A model generated the notes under the pieces. The model did not search any database, was not told the DNA's origin, and saw only the letters and a program-made list of their open reading frames with translations. 64,000 nt of DNA, taken from contig MKVX01000018.1 of the NCBI GenBank assembly GCA_001899255.1, forward strand, positions 311,150 through 375,149, read 5' to 3'. Positions within the stretch are counted from its first letter, which is position 1; each line of letters starts with the position of its first letter. Positions 44,353 through 54,200 of this stretch are shown here, piece by piece. The DNA is from Rhizobiales bacterium 62-47. Its GTDB lineage: Bacteria; Pseudomonadota; Alphaproteobacteria; Rhizobiales; Xanthobacteraceae. The translations under genes and the position numbers were made by a program.

Positions 44353-44356
44353 TCAG
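44168..44356 (-). other. Coding-like frame with no usual start codon
   Basis: A minus-strand frame ends with TAA at 44168-44170 and reads LSDFFLDDTSEIIARDYP, then TSLWRREQELRQSRQDLLA, then SSSERQFDSKLQVIGDMIYA, then GNVGM. The composition is like a real protein (about 62 residues) but no ATG, GTG or TTG precedes it; a CTG at 44354-44356 has GGAG upstream. It overlaps the end of the beta-CASP gene by a few bases. It may be the truncated tail of a lost gene, or a gene with a rare start. No family recognised. Confidence 0.35.
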
Positions 44357-45951
44357 TTGGCAGGCTCCAGTGCTCGTCGCAATCGCCTGATGATGACGCC
44401 GCGTGCACGATCGTCAGCCGCCGCCCCGATCTGCTCATTGATATCAAGGATGAGCCTAGACATATCGTTGTGCCAATCGAGCGCGACCACTGCCTCAGGC
44501 GTCAGCCGACGACGATGCGCCGCATTCAGGCTTGTCGGTATGGCTGTCGAGAGATCATAGATGTCGTCCAGCACAGGCCTGAAAACTTTCGCCGATGGGA
44601 TGAGCCGATCGGCAATGCGCTCGAAAAGGCCTGTAATGGCCGACTCCTCGCCATGGACAAGGAATATGCCTTTTTGAACGGGACGGCGCGCTGCGATCCA
44701 TCGAGCCAGTTCCGAGCCGTCTGCATGCCCGGAATAGTCCTCGATCCGGCGAATCCGGGCTGCCACCCTGATTTCTTCCCCCTGAATGCGGACAGCCTTG
44801 GCGCCGTCCTCAAGAAAGCGGCCGAGCGTGCCGCGCGCTTGAAAGCCAGCCAGAAGCACCGTGGCTCTGCTATTCCACAGCCAATGCTTGAGATGATGTC
44901 GGATACGACCGGCGTCGCACATGCCGCTTGCGGCAATGATGATGTGAAAGCCGTTGAGTTTGGCAATCGACTTGCTTTCGTCAACTGTCTCAGTGAATCG
45001 GAGGTGAGATGAATTGAGCAGACGAGCCACATCGATACCCGGATCGAGGCTTGCGGCATGCTTTCGGAAGACTTCGGTCGCGCGGATCGCGAGAGGAGAG
45101 TCGAGGATCAGCGGCGCGGCAGGAATGTCGCCGCGTTCCATCAGATCAACCAGATCGACGATCAGCTCCTGGGTGCGTTCGACTGCAAACGCGGGGATCA
45201 GCAGGGCACCCTTTGCCGCAGCGGCATCGCGCACCTCGGTTGCGAGACGCCTGCGACGATCTTGCAGTGACGTCTGCGGACGAATGCGGTCGCCATAAGT
45301 CGATTCCGAGATGATGTAATCGAAGCCTGCCGGCGCGACAGGGTTGGGTTGCAGCAATTTTGTATCGGGACCGATATCGCCGGAGGCGAGCAGGCGCAGG
45401 GGCTGCGTAGAGGTGTTTTGATTCTCAAACTCGAGTTCAATCGACGCTGACCCGAGCAGATGACCGGCATTCCAATAGCGGGCGCGGACGCCCGGTATAA
45501 CGTCGATCCACGCTTCGTATTCGACAGGTTGGAATGCCTGCAGCGATGCAATGGCGTCGGCCTGCGTATAGATCGGGCTGACCTCAGGTTTACCGCGCGC
45601 CATGTTGCGCCGGTTCAGAGCCATCACTTCGGATTCCTGAATGCTTCCGGAATCCGGCAACATGTACGAACACAGATCGATCGTTCCGCGCGTCGCCAGT
45701 ATCCGGCCACCGAAGCCTTCGCGCACCAGCTTCGGCAGCAATCCGCTGTGATCGATGTGGGCATGGGTGAGAAGGACGGTATCGATATCGGCTGCGCGAA
45801 ACGGGAAGGCTGAGTAGTTCAACTCCTTGAGGGTCTTCTGTCCCTGAAAAAGTCCGCAATCGACCAGAAAAGTGCCTGCTGGAGTCTGGAAGCGATAGCA
45901 AGACCCCGTGACGGTGCGGGCCGCGCCGCAAAATTGAACGGTGATGCTCAT
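44353..45951 (-). CDS. Beta-CASP metallo-beta-lactamase nuclease (CPSF/YSH1-like)
   Basis: Metallo-beta-lactamase protein of 532 residues with the beta-CASP insert and an RNA-specificity C-terminal part. The zinc site HAHIDH is at 63-68; further motifs are SESTYGDR, IPAFAVERTQELI, IIIAASGMCDAGRIRHH, DYSGHADGSELARW and LVHGEESA. These are hallmarks of CPSF73/Ysh1-type RNA nucleases, so it is likely a cytoplasmic RNA endo- or 5'-exonuclease. It is the last gene of a three-gene minus-strand operon and overlaps the upstream PRPP-synthetase homologue by 4 bases. RNA cleavage would supply nucleotides for its partners. Confidence 0.92.
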   Translation of the reverse strand: MSITVQFCGAARTVTGSCYRFQTPAGTFLVDCGLFQGQKTLKELNYSAFPFRAADIDTVLLTHAHIDHSGLLPKLVREGFGGRILATRGTIDLCSYMLPDSGSIQESEVMALNRRNMARGKPEVSPIYTQADAIASLQAFQPVEYEAWIDVIPGVRARYWNAGHLLGSASIELEFENQNTSTQPLRLLASGDIGPDTKLLQPNPVAPAGFDYIISESTYGDRIRPQTSLQDRRRRLATEVRDAAAAKGALLIPAFAVERTQELIVDLVDLMERGDIPAAPLILDSPLAIRATEVFRKHAASLDPGIDVARLLNSSHLRFTETVDESKSIAKLNGFHIIIAASGMCDAGRIRHHLKHWLWNSRATVLLAGFQARGTLGRFLEDGAKAVRIQGEEIRVAARIRRIEDYSGHADGSELARWIAARRPVQKGIFLVHGEESAITGLFERIADRLIPSAKVFRPVLDDIYDLSTAIPTSLNAAHRRRLTPEAVVALDWHNDMSRLILDINEQIGAAADDRARGVIIRRLRRALEPAN

Positions 45952-46871
45952 GGAGAAATGGCCTCGGAGGGAATTGCGCGGCTGAACTCGCTGCGTAAAG
46001 CCGCATCAAAGAGGTCGTCCAATGTAAACGCGTTGGTGGGGTGCGGCACGCTGTAGGTCGAACGGATCGAATGAATGCCGGCGTTGGCGAACTCGATTGT
46101 TCGCTTCGGTGCGAACAGCGCGTGGGTGACGATGGCATCGATCGTCGTGGCGCCGGCGGCGGAAACGGCCTGCGCGCAGGCGATCAGGGTGCCGCCCGAA
46201 GATACGATGTCGTCCAATATCAGGGCAGGGCGGCCCGCAAGCAGGGGCGGGTCGGCAAAAACCAGTTCGACGGATTGGTCGCCATGACGAACTTTTTGCG
46301 CAACTGCGCAAGTCAGGCCGAGGCTCCCGGCAAGATCGCCCACCCATCGGCGGGATTCCGCATCGGGACCCACCACGACTGTCGCAGGATCGATATTTTC
46401 GGCGCGAAGCGTTCTGGCAATTGCCGGCATGGCTGACAGATTGTCGGCATCGATGCCTTGAAAGACATTGGCGATATCGGTGGTGCGGTGTAGATGGGCG
46501 TCGACCGTGATCACGCGATCGACATTATGAGCAATGAGCCGGCCGATGGCTTTCTGGCTGATCGCCTCGCCTTCGTGGAAGGCAGTGTCCTGACGCATGT
46601 AGCAGAAATAGGGGGCCAGCAGCACGAGGCGAGTCGCGCCCTGGCGACGCAACACCTCGGCGGCCAATACAATTGCGATCAGCTTATCGCTGGGATCGTC
46701 GAGTGAAGCGTAGACAATCGTTGTCGATGTGGATGGGCCAACCGTCACACGCATCTCGCCATCGGGAAAACGATGTAAGGCGATCGCATGCGCGGCGACG
46801 CCGAGCTTCGATGCTAGACGCGTCGCGTCGGCCGCCGCAGATGGCAGATACTGAATGGAGATCCCGCTCAC
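45948..46871 (-). CDS. Divergent ribose-phosphate pyrophosphokinase homologue
   Basis: PRPP-synthetase family protein of 307 residues. The N-terminal RFPDGEMRV and [11 protein letters not shown] segments correspond to the substrate and ATP sites of Prs; [14 protein letters not shown] is the PRPP-binding loop; TVDAHLH supplies the metal-binding histidines. It is diverged from housekeeping Prs (for example FSDGE becomes FPDGE and the KRR loop is altered), so it is probably a paralogue rather than the essential enzyme. It overlaps both neighbours by 4 bases. Candidate reactions are PRPP synthesis from ribose-5-phosphate or phosphorylation of ribose-1,5-bisphosphate made by its partner; the latter is inference. 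Confidence 0.85.
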
Positions 46872-48409
46872 GACGTCGCCTCACGGTTAGCAGGCTCGTT
46901 GCCGATGGTGTAGGCCGTATTCGTCCTGGTTCCGGCGGCGGCAAGATCGTGTTCCGACTGGTCGAACGCATAGATGCGGTAAAGTGGCTCGCCTTGCTCG
47001 ACGCGGTCGCCAATTTTCTTGAATAGCTTGATGCCGGCGCCTTTATCGATTGGCGCTCCCGCGGTTCGCGCAAGCCGGTTCAGCTGCAGGCAATCGATGC
47101 CCGAGACAAAGCCATCGCTCGTAGCTGTGACATCGAATGTCAGGTTGCCCAAATCCGTGCAACAGGTTGGAGGCCCCTGCGCGTCGATCATCTTCTGCAT
47201 TTGTCGAAGCGCCGCGCCGCTATCGAGCAGTTCGCGTGCGCGTGCATAACCGCTCCCACCGCGCAGCTTCGGGTCATATTCGAGCAAGTGCGCCGCAAGC
47301 CTCAGGGATTTTTCGCGCAGGTCGGCTGGCGCCGCAGGATCGTTGGCCAAAACCGCCATGACATCCCGGGATTCGAGCACCGGGCCGATCCCGTTACCGA
47401 TGGGCTGGCTACCGTCGGTAACGACAACCTCGACCGATATGCCAAAATGGTCGCCGACGAACTCGAACAGTTTACGCAACCGCATCGCATCCATCGTGTT
47501 TGCGAGTTTGGCCGCGGGGCCAACGGGCAGATCGATCAGGAGATGGGTTGAACCTGCTGCGAGCTTCTTGGAGATGATTGACGCCACCATTTGCTCGCGG
47601 GTGTCGAGACCAAGCGGCCGTTCAACAGAAATCAGGATATCGTCGGCCGGCGACAGATTGACGTGTCCGCCCCAAACCAGACAGCCGCGACAGGCGGCTA
47701 CGACCGCCTTCATCTCCTCAACGCTCACATCCACGCGCGCCAACACTTCCATCGTATCGGCGGTGCCGGCCGGTGAGGTGATGGCTCGGGATGAAGTCTT
47801 CGGGATGGTAAGCCCATGGGCCGCCACGATCGGCACCACAATCATGGATGTGCGATTTCCCGGAATGCCGCCGATGCAGTGTTTGTCGACGATAATCGGG
47901 TTGCTCCACTTGAGTTGCGTTCCGGCCCGTGCCATGGCGCCGACCAAGGCGATCAGTTCGTCATTTGTCATAAAGCTGGCAGAGCTGATGAGGAAAGCGG
48001 CGATCTCCATGTCGGAGTACCGATAATGCGTCAGGTCATCGACGATGGCGCCGATATCGACAGCGCTGAACGTCTGCCCCATTATCTTGGCGCGCACCGC
48101 ATCGAGGCTCTCCGGAGAGACCGCTGGGGCGATAGTCACCACGCTGCCGACTGGCTCCGCGAAGCGCCGAAACGCCGGTTCCGAAAGTCCCAGATCGTCA
48201 GGACCCACCAACGCATCATCGTCGGTGATGATCAGGGTGGCCAACATTACCTTGCCATTCCGACGGAGTTCGACGCGACTGAATCCGCGAAAGATCTCCG
48301 GTCGCAAAGCTCGCGAGCGTCGCGATATGACAACGACATTTTCACGGCCGGTATCCAGGTTGATGCGACGGATCTTCGGCTGAGGCCGAAGGGTGTCGAT
48401 ACCGTTCAT
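46868..48409 (-). CDS. Type 2 thymidine/AMP phosphorylase
   Basis: Nucleoside phosphorylase family of 513 residues with an N-terminal extension of about 90 residues ([24 protein letters not shown]), as in the archaeal AMP phosphorylase. The phosphate and nucleoside binding segments are recognisable: [16 protein letters not shown] (KHSTGG in classical enzymes), [20 protein letters not shown], and [11 protein letters not shown]. This is the type 2 thymidine phosphorylase subfamily, whose archaeal members release a base and ribose-1,5-bisphosphate from NMPs. It starts the minus-strand operon at 48409 and overlaps the PRPP-synthetase homologue by 4 bases. Confidence 0.9.
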
Positions 48410-48483
48410 GTGGAAAGTCCGTAGAGCGACATGATGGCTAGTTTAGCCCGCATCCTGGAACTCTCATAGACTCAAATCATGCT

Positions 48484-48686
48484 ACGTCCTCTCGCTCCAG
48501 GTCCTTCATCCGCTTGGCCTTGATCAAGTTCAAGCCCGCCGTGTTTCTTCCGCCAGCGGTAATAGCTCTGCTGTGAATCCCCGCTTCCCGACAGGCTAAC
48601 GGTGTTGCTCTGCGCTGCTACATCAATACGTCAATCTGACGAAGCATCACTACGATTTGCTCCGCGCTGAATCTCTTCTTCGGCAT
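48484..48686 (-). pseudogene. Decayed IS3-family transposase orfA
   Basis: The minus strand begins MPKKRFSAEQIVVMLRQIDV and continues LM-stop-QRRATPLACREAGI, the N-terminus of IS3-family OrfA (MPKKRFSAEQIV..LRQIEVLMSQGK). An internal stop replaces a serine codon, and further on SQQSYYRWRKKHGG is only readable in another frame, so at least one frameshift is present. Upstream is a TGAGAAACTGAGCTTGG-like sequence that may be part of the insertion end. Confidence 0.8.
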
Positions 48687-48988: not shown

Positions 48989-50044
48989 TTATTTATTCAT
49001 CAGATGTTTGGTCGGTGTCACCGTACTGGCGGGCACCGCCTCGGAGATCGAGAATGTCAGCCAAGTATTCCAGCCGGCGGGCCGGTTATCGGCGGCAAAC
49101 TCACCATATCCCTTCAGGCCGAGAAACGCCTGGTTGCTCCCGATCGGGAAGATGTAGCCGATCTGCGGGCCGAGACCGAAAACCCGCGAGCGGAAACCGC
49201 CGAGAATGGCGGGCTGGCCGGAATCATTCGTGATCTGCTGGTAGCCGTAACCGACGACGCCCACGAACACCTGCTTCGACAGGAATTGCGACGCGCCCCA
49301 GTCGAAATGGAAATCGACGCCGCTTTGGTACTGAGTGTCCGGGTTCTTGAAGTTGTAGGTGAATCCGCCGACTCCGGAGAATTCCGTACCGGTTGCGTGA
49401 TTGAAATAAGTGTAGCCGCCGCCGAGGTCGATGGCGCCGTGACCGAGGCCGATATTGGAGAGTCGGCCGGGGCTGTAGTCTCCGACCGGAATGTCGCCAG
49501 TGGCATAGACCATGTAGTTGTGAACGCCGTTATTCCACTTCAGCTTTAGTGTTGGATAGAGATCGCCATAAGAGACCAGCGCGTCCTCGAGAAAACCATT
49601 ACGCGTGGTCACGATCGGGCCAACAGCCGACGTCAGCGCGCCGGCGAGGCTCACGGAATTTCTTCCGTAAACACTGGCGAGCGTCGCCGACAACTGACCG
49701 CCGAGCACCGGTGTCGCGAAGGTGTATGTTGGCGCGATGAGCATCAGGTCGGCCTGGGCGCTCAAAGCCACGTTAAGGTTGACATTGACGTTCGGTGAGA
49801 GGCCTCCGACCTGGAATTCCCGCGACGCCGCGGCGGCACCCGATGCATTCACGCTTGCATGGTAGTAGATCGCACCGATTGACCAGCCCGGTGTCGTCGG
49901 AGTTGCGGCAAGACTGCCGTATAGGCCCGGCAACCAGTATGAAATGCCATTTTCGTCGGCGGAGGCCATTTGCGGAGAAAGCAAAGCAATTGCAGCGGCG
50001 GCGAAAACACCGGTCAGCCGTAGCCCGTTGGAGTACTTTTTCAT
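48989..50044 (-). CDS. SphA/MetA-pathway-type outer membrane protein
   Basis: Exported protein of 351 residues. A signal peptide (MKKYSNGLRLTGVFAAAAIAL up to MASADE, cleavage near residue 29) is followed by alternating beta-strand rich sequence ending in a membrane-like motif. It matches the Phenol_MetA_deg/SphA family of barrel proteins, which are proposed to help hydrophobic or aromatic compounds cross the outer membrane. It is the last of three codirectional exported-protein genes, after the arylsulfatase and DUF1254 protein, and is probably in one transcription unit with them. Confidence 0.8.
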   Translation of the reverse strand: MKKYSNGLRLTGVFAAAAIALLSPQMASADENGISYWLPGLYGSLAATPTTPGWSIGAIYYHASVNASGAAAASREFQVGGLSPNVNVNLNVALSAQADLMLIAPTYTFATPVLGGQLSATLASVYGRNSVSLAGALTSAVGPIVTTRNGFLEDALVSYGDLYPTLKLKWNNGVHNYMVYATGDIPVGDYSPGRLSNIGLGHGAIDLGGGYTYFNHATGTEFSGVGGFTYNFKNPDTQYQSGVDFHFDWGASQFLSKQVFVGVVGYGYQQITNDSGQPAILGGFRSRVFGLGPQIGYIFPIGSNQAFLGLKGYGEFAADNRPAGWNTWLTFSISEAVPASTVTPTKHLMNK

Positions 50045-50167: not shown

Positions 50168-51670
50168 TTATTGAAGTTCAATTTCGCCGGGCCGCCAGGT
50201 CTTGTCGAACCAGGGCTTTGTCGGACCATAGAGTCGCAAGAGGGTGTTCCAGCTCGTACCAGGGACCGTCTGCACCCAGTTCTTTTCCTGCCCCGCGGGC
50301 GCCTTCGGGCCGAAGAAGACGTCAACCGAACTGTCGGCATTGACCTTGAGGCCTTCGGTTTGGCTGCCGACCGTCGGGAATTGCTGGTCAGTTTGGATCA
50401 TCGAGCGGGTCTGGTTGTCGTAGAGGATGACGGACCAGAAGTTCTTGATTGGAATGTTTGGCGGCAAATGCAGCTTGTAAGACTTCCCCCCGTCAAGCGC
50501 ATCGCCCTTCGAGTCGACAAAGGCGGCCATGTATTGCGAGCCTTCGCCAACGGTTTTTGAATCCATCGCCGGCGTGACACCGGTGGCATAAAAGAAAAAG
50601 CCTGCGTAACCGTTCAACTGACGGGCGCCCTTTTCCTCAAACTTATAGCCACCGATGAAACCAAGCCGCCAATTGCTCTTGCTGTCAGGATAATAATAGC
50701 CGTCGGACCCGCGCCATTTGTACATTGTGGCGCGTGCGGTGGCGTCACCGACAGCGGCAGCTTCTGTCAGTATCTTCTTCATTCTGTCGTCCGGTGCGAA
50801 CGGCTTGCCCTTCGCAATTCCAATTGAGGCCCAGAATCCAAGGGTCGTAGAGTCGACGCTGTCAGTGGGTTCGTCCTGCACGACTTTGTTGAGAAGCTCC
50901 CAGAACCGATAATCCCCCGGACCGACCATGTTGAACGGCTTACCGGACATGTTCACGAAATTGAGTTTCGGTGGATTGGCCGCCTGTTTGAGCGGGTAGA
51001 TCTTTGTAAATTTCTTGACGGCATCCACGCCGGGCTTCGGATCGCCATTGACCAGGAAGCTCCGCCAGGCCGTCCAGACGCTGAACGAGTTCGGACGAAT
51101 GATGAAGTAGTCTCTCGGCACCTCACCCGTGTAGCCGGGCGGCAAGAAAAGATATTTCCCGCCTTTACCTCGATCCGGACCAGTGAGCCCTATGTCGCCA
51201 TTCCAATTGTACCACACGTCATCAGCTAGCCCGAGAACCTTGGGAGGAGCTTCGACGACGATGGGTCCGTCATGGAGGTCCAGCCAAAACCAGGTGTAAG
51301 GTGTGTTGTTGTTGGCAGTGAGCTCCGTGGTGCGGGAGTCGACCAACGTCTCCCAGATCGGCACGGTCGTGTTGGCGGGGCCTAGTCGCAGAATGTTGTC
51401 TCGGTTAGCCACCTGATTCACCACGGGCAGAGCCAGCAGGTAGGCTTGGACCGCGCGCTGGAAGTCGAGGTTGTCATACAACTTGTCGACCGTCGCCGCG
51501 TCAGGGAAACCGCCGAAGAAACTCAGAGTCCCAAGACGCGTTTCCACCTTGTCCGGGATAGCAATGCCCGGAGGAATGGGCGTTTGCATTTTGTATTGTT
51601 GGGAATTGGCGGGAAGCGCCGAAAGCGCCAACAAAGACAGAGCAGAGGCCGCCAGTTTAATCGACGTCAT
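50168..51670 (-). CDS. DUF1254/DUF1214-domain exported protein
   Basis: Secreted protein of 500 residues. Signal peptide (LAASALSLLALSALPANSQQ) cleaves near residue 23. The N-terminal DUF1254 part (about 60-200) and C-terminal DUF1214 part (about 370-490, with IPIKNFWSVILYDNQTRSM) are in the usual order. The function of the family is unsettled; some members bind or process aromatic or steroid compounds. The gene lies 91 bases after the arylsulfatase stop on the same strand. Confidence 0.88.
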   Translation of the reverse strand: MTSIKLAASALSLLALSALPANSQQYKMQTPIPPGIAIPDKVETRLGTLSFFGGFPDAATVDKLYDNLDFQRAVQAYLLALPVVNQVANRDNILRLGPANTTVPIWETLVDSRTTELTANNNTPYTWFWLDLHDGPIVVEAPPKVLGLADDVWYNWNGDIGLTGPDRGKGGKYLFLPPGYTGEVPRDYFIIRPNSFSVWTAWRSFLVNGDPKPGVDAVKKFTKIYPLKQAANPPKLNFVNMSGKPFNMVGPGDYRFWELLNKVVQDEPTDSVDSTTLGFWASIGIAKGKPFAPDDRMKKILTEAAAVGDATARATMYKWRGSDGYYYPDSKSNWRLGFIGGYKFEEKGARQLNGYAGFFFYATGVTPAMDSKTVGEGSQYMAAFVDSKGDALDGGKSYKLHLPPNIPIKNFWSVILYDNQTRSMIQTDQQFPTVGSQTEGLKVNADSSVDVFFGPKAPAGQEKNWVQTVPGTSWNTLLRLYGPTKPWFDKTWRPGEIELQ

Positions 51671-51761: not shown

Positions 51762-54200
51762 TCAATCAGACAGTCCCTTCTTCAGCATCGCCGCCTTGCG
51801 GCCCTGTACGGCTTCTTCACTGTCGGCCTTTTTCATTTCCTTCAACTCGATCGTCACCTGGCCGATTTTGCCGGTAAATTTGAACGGCACCTTGTAGGCC
51901 TCCGTGACTGGGGTGCCCTCGTCGGCCCCGACATCGGCGCCTTCGTCGGCTGAGAAGCTGCAGCACTGGGTCTGCTCGATGCGGCCGCTGGCAACTCTTT
52001 TGCCGTTGACAAACATTGTGCCTGTACCGCCCTTGCCGATCCCGCCGCCGTCGTAGGCGAACTCGAATCGGATCGTGGCCTTTCCGGCCGGCAATGCCTG
52101 CTGGGAAGCCACCGTAAATCGCTGCAAACCAAGGAAGTTGTAGGTGTATGTCGGCTTGCCATCCTTCAGGTACAGACTCCACCCGCCGAACCTGCCAGCC
52201 TGGGCAAGGATGGCTCCGCTGTCACCCGCCTTCGGGATTGCCACATCCGCAGTAATGACATGCGAGCGGTTCTTCGTATTGATGAACACGTTCTCGGACA
52301 TCCCGAGCATGCCCTCGTGCACCGTCAGGGAGGTACGTCCAGCCATCAAGTCGGGCCGTCCGACCATCGCCGCGTTCAGTCGCTCCAGAGTGCGGTCGTC
52401 GAGCGGCAACACAGAATACTTGACTGCCTCCTTGAGAAACAGCTCCTGAAGCTCCTTCAGCTTATCCGGGTTCTTTGCAGCCAGATTGTTCGCCAGGCTG
52501 AAGTCCGTCCGCGTATCGTAAAGCTCCCAGATATCCTCTTCGAGCGGACGGCGATTCTTAGTTTCCCACGCTGCCCGGTGGATCGTTCCGGCCAGCCAGC
52601 CATCATCGTACACCGCGCGGTTGCCGAAGATTTCGAAGTACTGCGTTTTATGGGTGCTGTCCGCCTTGGGATCGGCAAAGGAGTAGACCATGCTCGTTCC
52701 CTCGATCGGTGTCTGAACCGTGCCATTCACGCTCTTGGGCTCTGGCAAGCTGGCCGCCTCCAAGATCGTCGGCACGATATCGATCACGTGATGCCACTGC
52801 GAACGTACCTCACCCTTCGCCGCGATGCCCTTCGGCCAATGAATGACCATGCCATTGCGGGTGCCGCCATAGCTCGAAGCCACCTGCTTCGTCCACGTGA
52901 AGGGCGTATCGCCCGCGACCGCCCATCCGGCCGCATAATGGCTGTACGTCATCGGGCCGCCGAGATCGTCGTAATGTTTGAGGATGTCCTGAACCTTTTC
53001 CTCTACGCCGTTGAAATACGTCATCTCGTTGAACAAGCCGTTCATGCCTCCTTCGGCACTCGCGCCGTTGTCGCCGACAATGTAGAAGACCAGCGTGTTG
53101 TCGAGTTGGCCGGTCGCCTTGATGGCGTCGACCAGCCGGCCGATCTCGGTATCGGCGTATTCGCCGAAGCCGGCGAACACTTCCATCTGGCGCGCAAACA
53201 GCTTTTTCTCGTCCGCGCTCAGAGTGGCCCAGTCCTTGATGGCTTCCGGCTTGGGGGCGAGTTTCGTATTTGGCGGCACCACGCCGAGCTTGATCTGGCG
53301 GGCCAGCGTTTCCTCGCGCAGCTTGTCCCAGCCCTGATCGAACTTGCCCTTGTACTTGGCGATCCATTCCTTTGGCACATGGTGCGGGGCATGTGTCGCG
53401 CCCGGCGCAAAGTATATGAAGAACGGTTTGTCGGGCGTCAGCGACTTCTGGTACTGCATCCAATCGATCGCCTTGTTGGTCATGTCCGTCATGAAGTTGT
53501 AGTTCGGATCTTTCGACGGCTCGACCTGGGTCATCCCGTCATAGATCAGCGGAGCCCATTGGTTGGTCTCGCCGCCCATGAACCCGTAGAACTTGTCAAA
53601 GCCCTGACGGGTCGGCCAGCGATCGGTCGGGCCCGACGGGCTCACTTCCCATGCCGCGGTTTCGTGATTCTTGCCGAAATGCGCAGTGCTGTAGCCATTC
53701 AGCCTTAGCATCTCCGCCACGGTAGCTACGCTGTTAGGGCGCTGCCCGGTCTGCCCCGGGAAGGTCGTCGCAGTTTCCGCGATCGAACCGAAGTTATTCA
53801 TGTGATGGTTACGCCCGCTCAGCAGCGCCGATCGAGTCGGCGAACAAAGCGCCGTCGTATGGAATTCGTTGTAGCGGAGGCCTTCGTTGGCGAGGCGATC
53901 CACGGTCGGCATACTGATCGGTCCACCGAATGCGCTGGATTGCCCGAAGCCCATATCGTCGATCAGCACGATGAGCACGTTCGGCGCTGCCGCCGGTGCT
54001 TTCACTTCGAACCGTGGCGGCGGCGTTGCATTGCGGGCGTCGAATACAGTGCTGTGTGGGTATTGCGGTTCCGGGATCGGCAAAACCGAACGGTCCGTCG
54101 GAAGCACTACCCCCGGAGAAGCCGCCTGTTGCGCGTTCGCCGGAATTGCCAGCAGCGCAATTGAGGACAGTGCGGCGAGCACCCTCATCATAGATCTCAT
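51762..54200 (-). CDS. Exported arylsulfatase
   Basis: Formylglycine-dependent sulfatase of 812 residues. A signal peptide (MRVLAALSSIALLAIPANAQ) directs it to the periplasm. The metal/active-site start IVLIDDMGFGQSSA has the paired aspartates at 81-82, and the formylglycine motif C119-S-P-T-R (LCSPTRSALLSGR) has the cysteine at 119. The C-terminal part (about 620-800) is a second domain with a beta-sandwich (GKATIRFEFAYDGG). It removes sulfate from aryl or alkyl sulfates. A formylglycine-generating enzyme is not in the window. The stop at 51762 is followed by the DUF1254 gene. Confidence 0.93.
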   Translation of the reverse strand: MRSMMRVLAALSSIALLAIPANAQQAASPGVVLPTDRSVLPIPEPQYPHSTVFDARNATPPPRFEVKAPAAAPNVLIVLIDDMGFGQSSAFGGPISMPTVDRLANEGLRYNEFHTTALCSPTRSALLSGRNHHMNNFGSIAETATTFPGQTGQRPNSVATVAEMLRLNGYSTAHFGKNHETAAWEVSPSGPTDRWPTRQGFDKFYGFMGGETNQWAPLIYDGMTQVEPSKDPNYNFMTDMTNKAIDWMQYQKSLTPDKPFFIYFAPGATHAPHHVPKEWIAKYKGKFDQGWDKLREETLARQIKLGVVPPNTKLAPKPEAIKDWATLSADEKKLFARQMEVFAGFGEYADTEIGRLVDAIKATGQLDNTLVFYIVGDNGASAEGGMNGLFNEMTYFNGVEEKVQDILKHYDDLGGPMTYSHYAAGWAVAGDTPFTWTKQVASSYGGTRNGMVIHWPKGIAAKGEVRSQWHHVIDIVPTILEAASLPEPKSVNGTVQTPIEGTSMVYSFADPKADSTHKTQYFEIFGNRAVYDDGWLAGTIHRAAWETKNRRPLEEDIWELYDTRTDFSLANNLAAKNPDKLKELQELFLKEAVKYSVLPLDDRTLERLNAAMVGRPDLMAGRTSLTVHEGMLGMSENVFINTKNRSHVITADVAIPKAGDSGAILAQAGRFGGWSLYLKDGKPTYTYNFLGLQRFTVASQQALPAGKATIRFEFAYDGGGIGKGGTGTMFVNGKRVASGRIEQTQCCSFSADEGADVGADEGTPVTEAYKVPFKFTGKIGQVTIELKEMKKADSEEAVQGRKAAMLKKGLSD

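What the first reader, a model, noticed from the sequence alone, without database searches (positions are those of the whole stretch)
44353..48409. Overlapping trio: RNase, PRPP-synthetase homologue and type 2 phosphorylase
Three genes on the minus strand overlap by exactly 4 bases: a type 2 thymidine/AMP phosphorylase, a divergent PRPP-synthetase homologue and a beta-CASP RNA nuclease. This is seen directly. Archaeal relatives of the first enzyme make ribose-1,5-bisphosphate from AMP. My inference is a salvage route: RNA to NMP by the nuclease, NMP plus phosphate to base plus ribose-1,5-bisphosphate, then use by the PRPP-synthetase homologue (for example phosphorylation to PRPP, feeding base salvage). 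There is no RuBisCO or R15P isomerase in the window to take the archaeal route. I know of no experimental description of this bacterial trio. It is the best candidate for an undescribed system here.
Basis: partly seen in the sequence, partly recalled or inferred. Interest (0 to 1): 0.75.

Follow-up and report, generated by a model that had tools for sequence, protein, structure and literature searches.

The report
Low-oxygen RNA-ribose salvage operon
Three overlapping bacterial genes encode a likely RNA-cutting enzyme, an enzyme that probably strips the base off nucleotides and an unusual relative of PRPP synthetase; the last two go together in most genomes examined, and their likely job is to turn RNA's ribose into usable sugar phosphate when oxygen is scarce, by a step for which no description was found.

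Summary
The trio is real: TP (46868-48409), PRS-like (45948-46871), beta-CASP (44353-45951), minus strand, joined by GTGA and ATGA overlaps. It is a conserved module. In 199 genomes of the host's phylum TP occurs in 26 and PRS-like in the same 26, with 0 of the other 173. PRS-like lies within 7 kb of TP in 111 of 122 loci, beta-CASP within 6 kb in 67. PRS-like keeps the main active-site residues of PRPP synthetase but has its own HLHR and GPDxExxxW motifs. TP's model best matches archaeal AMP phosphorylase. The host genome shows no R15P isomerase family and no PhnN, and its RuBisCO is not of the archaeal type III, leaving PRS-like as the only visible taker for R15P. The Bradyrhizobium diazoefficiens counterparts are microoxia-induced; two of them, with a phosphoketolase and acetate kinase, depend on FixK2 (PMC6515984, PMC9104804). 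Phosphoketolase lies near the cluster in 10 of 122 loci but is missing from this host. I favour low-oxygen catabolism of RNA ribose (NMP to R15P to R5P) over PRPP synthesis for base salvage. No activity has been tested.

The parts
46868..48409 (-). TP: type 2 thymidine/NMP phosphorylase homologue (TIGR02645), first gene of the operon
   Evidence: AlphaFold model matches AMP phosphorylase 4ga5 with TM 0.89/0.92 over 503 columns
45948..46871 (-). PRS-like: divergent PRPP-synthetase homologue (PRK07199/NF005537) with HLHR (126-129) and GPDxExxxW (168-176) motifs
44353..45951 (-). beta-CASP metallo-beta-lactamase-fold RNase homologue with HAHIDH, SGD and ESTYG motifs
46868..46871 (-). 4-base overlap (GTGA) of TP stop and PRS-like start
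45948..45951 (-). 4-base overlap (ATGA) of PRS-like stop and beta-CASP start
48467..48480 (-). possible decayed FixK/FNR-like box ATGATTTGAGTCTA at -71 of TP (2 mismatches to TTGAYNNNNRTCAA)
   Evidence: several relatives carry one-mismatch boxes such as ATGATCTGGGTCAA at about -70 to -75; PMC9104804 (passage) lists ATGATCTGGGTCAA at -74 of bll3117

Best explanation
The operon is a low-oxygen ribose-salvage module. The beta-CASP RNase, where present, helps cut RNA towards 5'-NMPs (inferred). TP phosphorolyses NMPs to free base plus ribose-1,5-bisphosphate, R15P (inferred from family, fold and loop motif). The PRS-like enzyme binds R15P and an adenine nucleotide and moves the C1 phosphate onto AMP or ADP, giving R5P plus ADP or ATP (inferred); with AMP this is PRPP-synthetase chemistry run backwards with one phosphate fewer. 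R5P then enters the pentose phosphates; in relatives with phosphoketolase and acetate kinase it can yield acetyl phosphate and ATP. In the window's host, where no phosphoketolase was found, it would enter the transketolase/Calvin network. Shown here: gene structure, linkage, motifs, and no sign of other R15P enzymes in the families searched. Shown by others in B. diazoefficiens: microoxic induction of the three counterparts and FixK2 dependence of two. Not shown: any enzyme activity.
For: The same 26 of 199 genomes hold TP and PRS-like, 0 of 173 others (Fisher p 3.8e-33). PRS-like within 7 kb of TP in 111 of 122 loci. TP and PRS-like distance matrices agree, rho 0.87 against a null maximum of 0.16 in 500 permutations (111 loci). 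Gene order differs between lineages while the set stays together. PRS-like keeps F35/D37/E39, R93/Q94/D95, H126, K193/R195 and D220/D221/S224/T228 and has GPDxE where canonical enzymes have PDxG; HLHR in 111 of 111 and GPDxExxxW in 108 of 111 loci, neither in the two other Prs of the genome. No PF01008 match; the only PhnN-like hit is guanylate kinase; the single RuBisCO is not of type III. Regulation: PMC6515984 section 18 with Table 2 (read) and PMC9104804 (passage). FixK-like boxes with one mismatch upstream of TP in 23 of 113 loci against 1.7 expected. Phosphoketolase within about 9.5 kb of TP in 10 of 122 loci, acetate kinase in 7.
Against: No phosphoketolase was found in the window's own genome (XFP_N at E up to 1e-8), and its genome-level association with TP is weak (9 of 26 against 26 of 173, p 0.024, relatedness not controlled). 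Of nine genomes whose TP lacks a nearby PRS-like gene, six show no PRS-like gene at all (some are MAGs), so TP can occur without it. In PMC6515984 Table 2 the trio is in the extended list (log2 FC at least 1), not in the 62-protein core; it is marked as not in the earlier-defined direct FixK2 regulon and as not induced in soybean bacteroids. Catalytic residues of a true PRPP synthetase are kept, so ordinary R5P diphosphokinase activity is not excluded. TP misses the AMP-phosphorylase cut-off (474 against 535 bits). The window's own box is decayed. Transfer of the C1 phosphate of R15P to AMP is probably uphill under standard conditions (my estimate, recalled values) and would need a pull from downstream.
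Confidence: 0.42

Rival explanations
1. One reading: TP makes R15P from NMPs and the PRS-like protein phosphorylates R15P with ATP to PRPP, which feeds base salvage.
For: Adenine-nucleotide and 5-phosphate sites kept; no PhnN over cut-off in the genome to do this step; a phosphoribosyltransferase-like gene of unknown substrate clusters near TP in 5 of 106 loci.
Against: Regulon and several cluster partners are energy-yielding rather than biosynthetic (PMC9104804, passage); the genome has two further PRPP synthetase homologues.
Confidence: 0.22
2. TP is a nucleoside phosphorylase giving ribose-1-phosphate; a phosphopentomutase makes R5P; the PRS-like protein is an ordinary PRPP synthetase. The pair simply makes PRPP from nucleosides.
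For: R264, S277 and K281 are invariant in 13 aligned TPs (their pyrimidine-binding role is recalled from classical enzymes); NCBIfam names the PRS-like protein ribose-phosphate diphosphokinase.
Against: TP has the extra N-terminal domain of AMP phosphorylase and GNRT where the classical enzyme shown has GDKV; PRS-like has GPDxE in place of PDxG and HLHR in 111 of 111 loci, odd for a redundant third copy.
Confidence: 0.2
3. The pair runs in the anabolic direction: PRS-like makes R15P from R5P and ADP or ATP, and TP joins it to free bases to give NMPs without phosphoribosyltransferases.
For: Phosphorolysis is reversible, and the archaeal NMP phosphorylase is described as linking nucleosides and NMPs through R15P (PMC9700705, passages).
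Against: An RNase homologue near TP (67 of 122 loci) and phosphoketolase or acetate kinase neighbours in some loci suggest breakdown.
Confidence: 0.1

Closest known systems
Archaeal pentose bisphosphate pathway (NMP phosphorylase, R15P isomerase, form III RuBisCO)
   Same: Same phosphorylase superfamily and fold, with the N-terminal domain; R15P is the likely node (PMC9700705, passages)
   Different: No match to the R15P isomerase family PF01008; the RuBisCO found is not of type III; a PRS-like protein takes their place
Class I and archaeal PRPP synthetases
   Same: Fold (best match Thermoplasma volcanium 3mbi, TM 0.86/0.92), nucleotide and 5-phosphate site residues, K193 and R195
   Different: HLHR and GPDxE(xxxW) where canonical enzymes have a shorter stretch and PDxG; found only with TP in the 199-genome sample; an extra copy beside two others in this genome
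PhnN ribose-1,5-bisphosphokinase
   Same: R15P as possible substrate
   Different: Belongs to the guanylate-kinase-like family; no PhnN over cut-off in this genome
Thermus TTHA0252 and other beta-CASP RNases
   Same: Domains and HxHxDH motif
   Different: Longer (532 against 431 residues); linked to TP and PRS-like
Microoxic/FixK2 regulon genes bll3117-bll3116-bll3115 of Bradyrhizobium diazoefficiens
   Same: Same order and annotation; identical promoter box in window relatives L035 and L069; orthology inferred, not aligned here
   Different: In the sections and passages I read they are expression-table entries without an assigned role

Membership tests
TIGR02645 (type 2 thymidine phosphorylase, putative) | score over curated cut-off 434.6 | tested here: met
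   701 bits, positions 2-491 of 493
TIGR03327 AMP phosphorylase (equivalog) | score over curated cut-off 535 | tested here: not met
   474.2 bits
TIGR03327 AMP phosphorylase (equivalog) | N-terminal domain plus phosphorylase fold | tested here: met
   TM 0.89/0.92 to 4ga5 over 503 columns
TIGR03327 AMP phosphorylase (equivalog) | phosphorolysis of NMPs to R15P | not testable with these tools
   needs enzyme assay
Pentose bisphosphate pathway | R15P isomerase present | tested here: not met
   0 matches to PF01008 in the genome; the control rings in 9 of 14 known genomes
Pentose bisphosphate pathway | form III RuBisCO | tested here: not met
   one RuBisCO; its 308-residue matched part scores 531 bits to NF003252 rbcL and 271 to type III TIGR03326 (cut-off 497, for a whole protein); form I is my inference
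PRK07199 ribose-phosphate diphosphokinase subfamily | score over curated cut-off 322 | tested here: met
   366 bits
Functional PRPP synthetase | nucleotide, 5-phosphate and catalytic K/R residues | tested here: met
   nucleotide and 5-phosphate roles from PMC6332680 (passages), K/R role recalled. E. coli R99 has no counterpart here (T96 in the window)
Functional PRPP synthetase | PDxG loop of canonical enzymes | tested here: not met
   GPDxE instead; PDxG present in both other copies of this genome
Functional PRPP synthetase | makes PRPP from R5P and ATP | not testable with these tools
   needs enzyme assay
Beta-CASP RNase | Lactamase_B, Beta-Casp and RMMBL domains with HxHxDH | tested here: met
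Beta-CASP RNase | cuts RNA | not testable with these tools
   needs enzyme assay
FixK/FNR regulon | TTGAYNNNNRTCAA-type box in the promoter | tested here: inconclusive
   window box at -71 has 2 mismatches; two overlapping one-mismatch sites lie at -124 and -118

The most novel reading that the evidence does not exclude
The PRS-like protein is a new enzyme, an R15P:AMP (or ADP) phosphotransferase that returns R15P to R5P while saving its C1 phosphate as ADP or ATP. With TP it forms an isomerase-free and RuBisCO-free exit from R15P, letting bacteria burn their own RNA's ribose during oxygen limitation.
Probability: 0.28. Interest if true: 0.85.

Novelty: new variant of a known kind. Interest (0 to 1): 0.64.

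Why it matters
Two generic database names (thymidine phosphorylase, ribose-phosphate diphosphokinase) probably hide one linked function in alpha-, beta- and gammaproteobacteria, also on plasmids (TP in 114 plasmid records) and on at least one chlamydial plasmid. If right, it extends R15P metabolism to ordinary bacteria by a new step, gives a role to low-oxygen-induced proteins that have none in the sources read, and offers a direct test of whether cells short of oxygen use RNA as fuel.

Tried and rejected
Rejected: archaeal exit from R15P (no PF01008 match, RuBisCO not of type III). Rejected: PhnN in this genome (its 43-bit hit is guanylate kinase, 227 bits). Rejected: chance neighbourhood. 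Rejected: phosphoketolase as a fixed part (10 of 122 loci; not found in the host genome). Considered: a TrpD-like 5-phosphate site in TP; the profile alignment puts the NRTS loop of TP beside the NVST loop of TrpD but with a gap and one residue off my hand alignment, so it is a lead only. A decayed IS-like frame upstream of the operon gave no Pfam hit.

That searches drew the same 199 genomes is inferred from their agreeing handles. Alignment A2 was built from PRS-like neighbours of TP, so finding those is partly by construction; the 0 of 173 is not. Many loci end within the search range, so neighbour counts are lower bounds. In one search, 113 loci were used (8 of the 15 plasmid regions were tried; loci with too little upstream DNA dropped out). 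Poisson and Fisher values do not control relatedness.
Full report
Observation. TP scores 701 bits to TIGR02645 (cut-off 434.6) and 474 to the AMP phosphorylase model (cut-off 535). PRS-like scores 366 bits to PRK07199 (cut-off 322). The third protein has Lactamase_B, Beta-Casp and RMMBL domains. The best solved relatives by sequence are AMP phosphorylase 4ga5, several PRPP synthetases and RNase TTHA0252.

Linkage. I searched 199 genomes of the host's phylum (Pseudomonadota by its named relatives), with a completeness floor of 90. TIGR02645 (E at most 1e-100) occurs in 26. A profile of the PRS-like proteins (E at most 1e-55) occurs in the same 26 and in 0 of the other 173. The weakest PRS-like match is 2.9e-99; in nine further genomes the ordinary Prs proteins reach 8.6e-46 at best. 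The profile was built from neighbours of TP, so the positives are partly by construction; the absence elsewhere is not. Around TP in 122 loci (the window, 26 loci from 25 of those genomes, the best 80 loci of GTDB genomes, 15 hand-picked plasmid regions) PRS-like lies within 7 kb in 111. It is downstream on the same strand in 107 and upstream in 4. Beta-CASP lies within 6 kb in 67 of 122, downstream (TP-PRS-CASP, as here) or upstream (CASP-TP-PRS), and some clusters run PRS-XFP'-CASP-TP. Of the 11 loci without a nearby PRS-like gene, nine genomes were searched: three hold one elsewhere and six show none. TP and PRS-like evolve together (rho 0.87, null maximum 0.16, 111 loci; a slightly different 111 from that).

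The PRS-like protein. Its predicted structure (pLDDT 91.9) is a PRPP synthetase fold closest to the Thermoplasma volcanium enzyme. Residues conserved in at least 98% of 111 sequences include F35, P36, D37, E39, R93, Q94, D95, H126, K193, R195, D220, D221, S224 and T228; by comparison with E. coli Prs (PMC6332680, passages) most of these fall in the nucleotide and 5-phosphate sites, and K193/R195 match the catalytic pair (role recalled). As conserved, and not shared with the canonical enzymes compared, are L127, H128, R129, E172 and W176; canonical enzymes have PDxG where this family has GPDxE. HLHR is found in 111 of 111 loci and the full GPDxExxxW in 108 of 111; the two other Prs of the host genome have neither.

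TP. The model (pLDDT 88.5) matches AMP phosphorylase 4ga5 over its length (TM 0.89/0.92), then classical pyrimidine phosphorylases, then TrpD. The GNRT or ANRT loop is found in 120 of 122 loci; the archaeal enzyme has GNKT and the classical enzyme shown has GDKV. This fits a 5'-phosphorylated substrate but proves nothing.

What happens to R15P in the host. The genome has no match to the R15P isomerase family PF01008. Its PhnN-like hit is guanylate kinase. Its single RuBisCO match scores far better to the general rbcL model than to type III (531 against 271 bits for the matched part), so I infer form I. If TP makes R15P, PRS-like is the only visible taker among the families searched.

Regulation, from papers. 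In B. diazoefficiens the predicted operon bll3117-bll3116-bll3115 has the same order and names. At 0.5% oxygen the proteins rise by log2 2.1, 4.4 and 2.9 and the transcripts 5.1-, 7.7- and 15.4-fold (bll3117, bll3116, bll3115; PMC6515984, section 18 and Table 2, read). They are in the extended list, not in the 62-protein core; they are marked as not belonging to the earlier-defined direct FixK2 regulon and as not induced in bacteroids. In a fixK2 deletion bll3117 and bll3115 fall 6.6- and 30.6-fold, with a box at -74 of bll3117, and phosphoketolase bll2518 and acetate kinase bll2517 fall about 10-fold (PMC9104804, passage read). I did not align bll3117 itself; the identical 14-base box at -74 in L035 and -73 in L069 supports orthology. 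Boxes with one mismatch occur upstream of TP in 23 of 113 loci against 1.7 expected, perfect ones in 5 against 0.6. In the window the site at -71 has two mismatches; overlapping one-mismatch sites lie at -124 and -118.

Partners. Phosphoketolase lies within about 9.5 kb of TP in 10 of 122 loci and acetate kinase in 7. Examples: Legionella fallonii CASP-TP-PRS-phosphoketolase, Shinella phosphoketolase-PRS-CASP-TP, Criblamydia phosphoketolase-GlgP-ATP cone protein-CASP-TP-PRS-acetate kinase, Paracoccus PRS-small ORF-XFP'-CASP-TP, Rhizobium rosettiformans PRS-XFP'-CASP-TP with carbamate kinase, adenylate kinase and a universal stress protein upstream, and Legionella anisa TP-PRS followed by an alternate ATP synthase. 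Of the 15 plasmid regions, five show phosphoketolase; the other ten do not within the range. XFP' is a divergent phosphoketolase: the L052 copy has XFP and XFP_N domains but no XFP_C hit, and the four copies tested (L030, L052, L152, L155) score far below every NCBIfam phosphoketolase cut-off. Against a fixed role: none was found in the host of the window, and at genome level the association is weak (9 of 26 against 26 of 173, p 0.024).

Mechanism. PRPP synthetase moves a diphosphate from ATP to O1 of R5P, leaving AMP. The same active site with one phosphate fewer would interconvert R5P plus ADP with R15P plus AMP. Run towards R5P, with adenylate kinase or phosphoketolase pulling, it would drain R15P and keep the phosphate. 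This is my inference; no call shows it.

Novelty. Ten paper searches of one open-access library brought up the trio as expression-table entries (PMC6515984, PMC9104804) and, in a listing only, bll3115 in PMC5017801 (not read). I found no functional description in what I saw; papers outside that library were not searched.

Noticed in passing
window 48621-48686 (-): Short decayed reading frame (22 aa) that looks like the start of an IS3-type transposase orfA (label recalled; no Pfam hit), just upstream of the operon promoter.
   Followed up: partly
L030 12143-14542, L033 5931-8600, L052 4709-7066, L152 5209-7593, L155 5236-7605: Divergent phosphoketolase-like proteins in or beside the TP/PRS/CASP cluster, in L152 and L155 annotated xylulose 5-phosphate 3-epimerase; four of these five were tested and all four score far below the NCBIfam phosphoketolase cut-offs.
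   Followed up: partly
G000:C23 451046-451969 and 478732-479688 (L062, L056): A second Prs homologue lies about 27 kb from the RuBisCO gene in the host genome.
   Followed up: no
L150 6771-7613: Protein with ATP-cone and weak Mrr_cat matches between glycogen phosphorylase and beta-CASP in the Criblamydia cluster.
   Followed up: no
L073, L085, L087, L090, L096, L104, L156, L157: TP directly followed by beta-CASP without a nearby PRS-like gene (Azospirillum, Niveispirillum, Ferrovibrio, two Bradyrhizobium, a Rhodospirillales MAG): a reduced form of the module.
   Followed up: partly
window 51762-54200 (-), 50168-51670 (-), 48989-50044 (-): Sulfatase, DUF1254/DUF1214 protein and Phenol_MetA_deg-family protein upstream of the operon; no visible link to it.
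   Followed up: no
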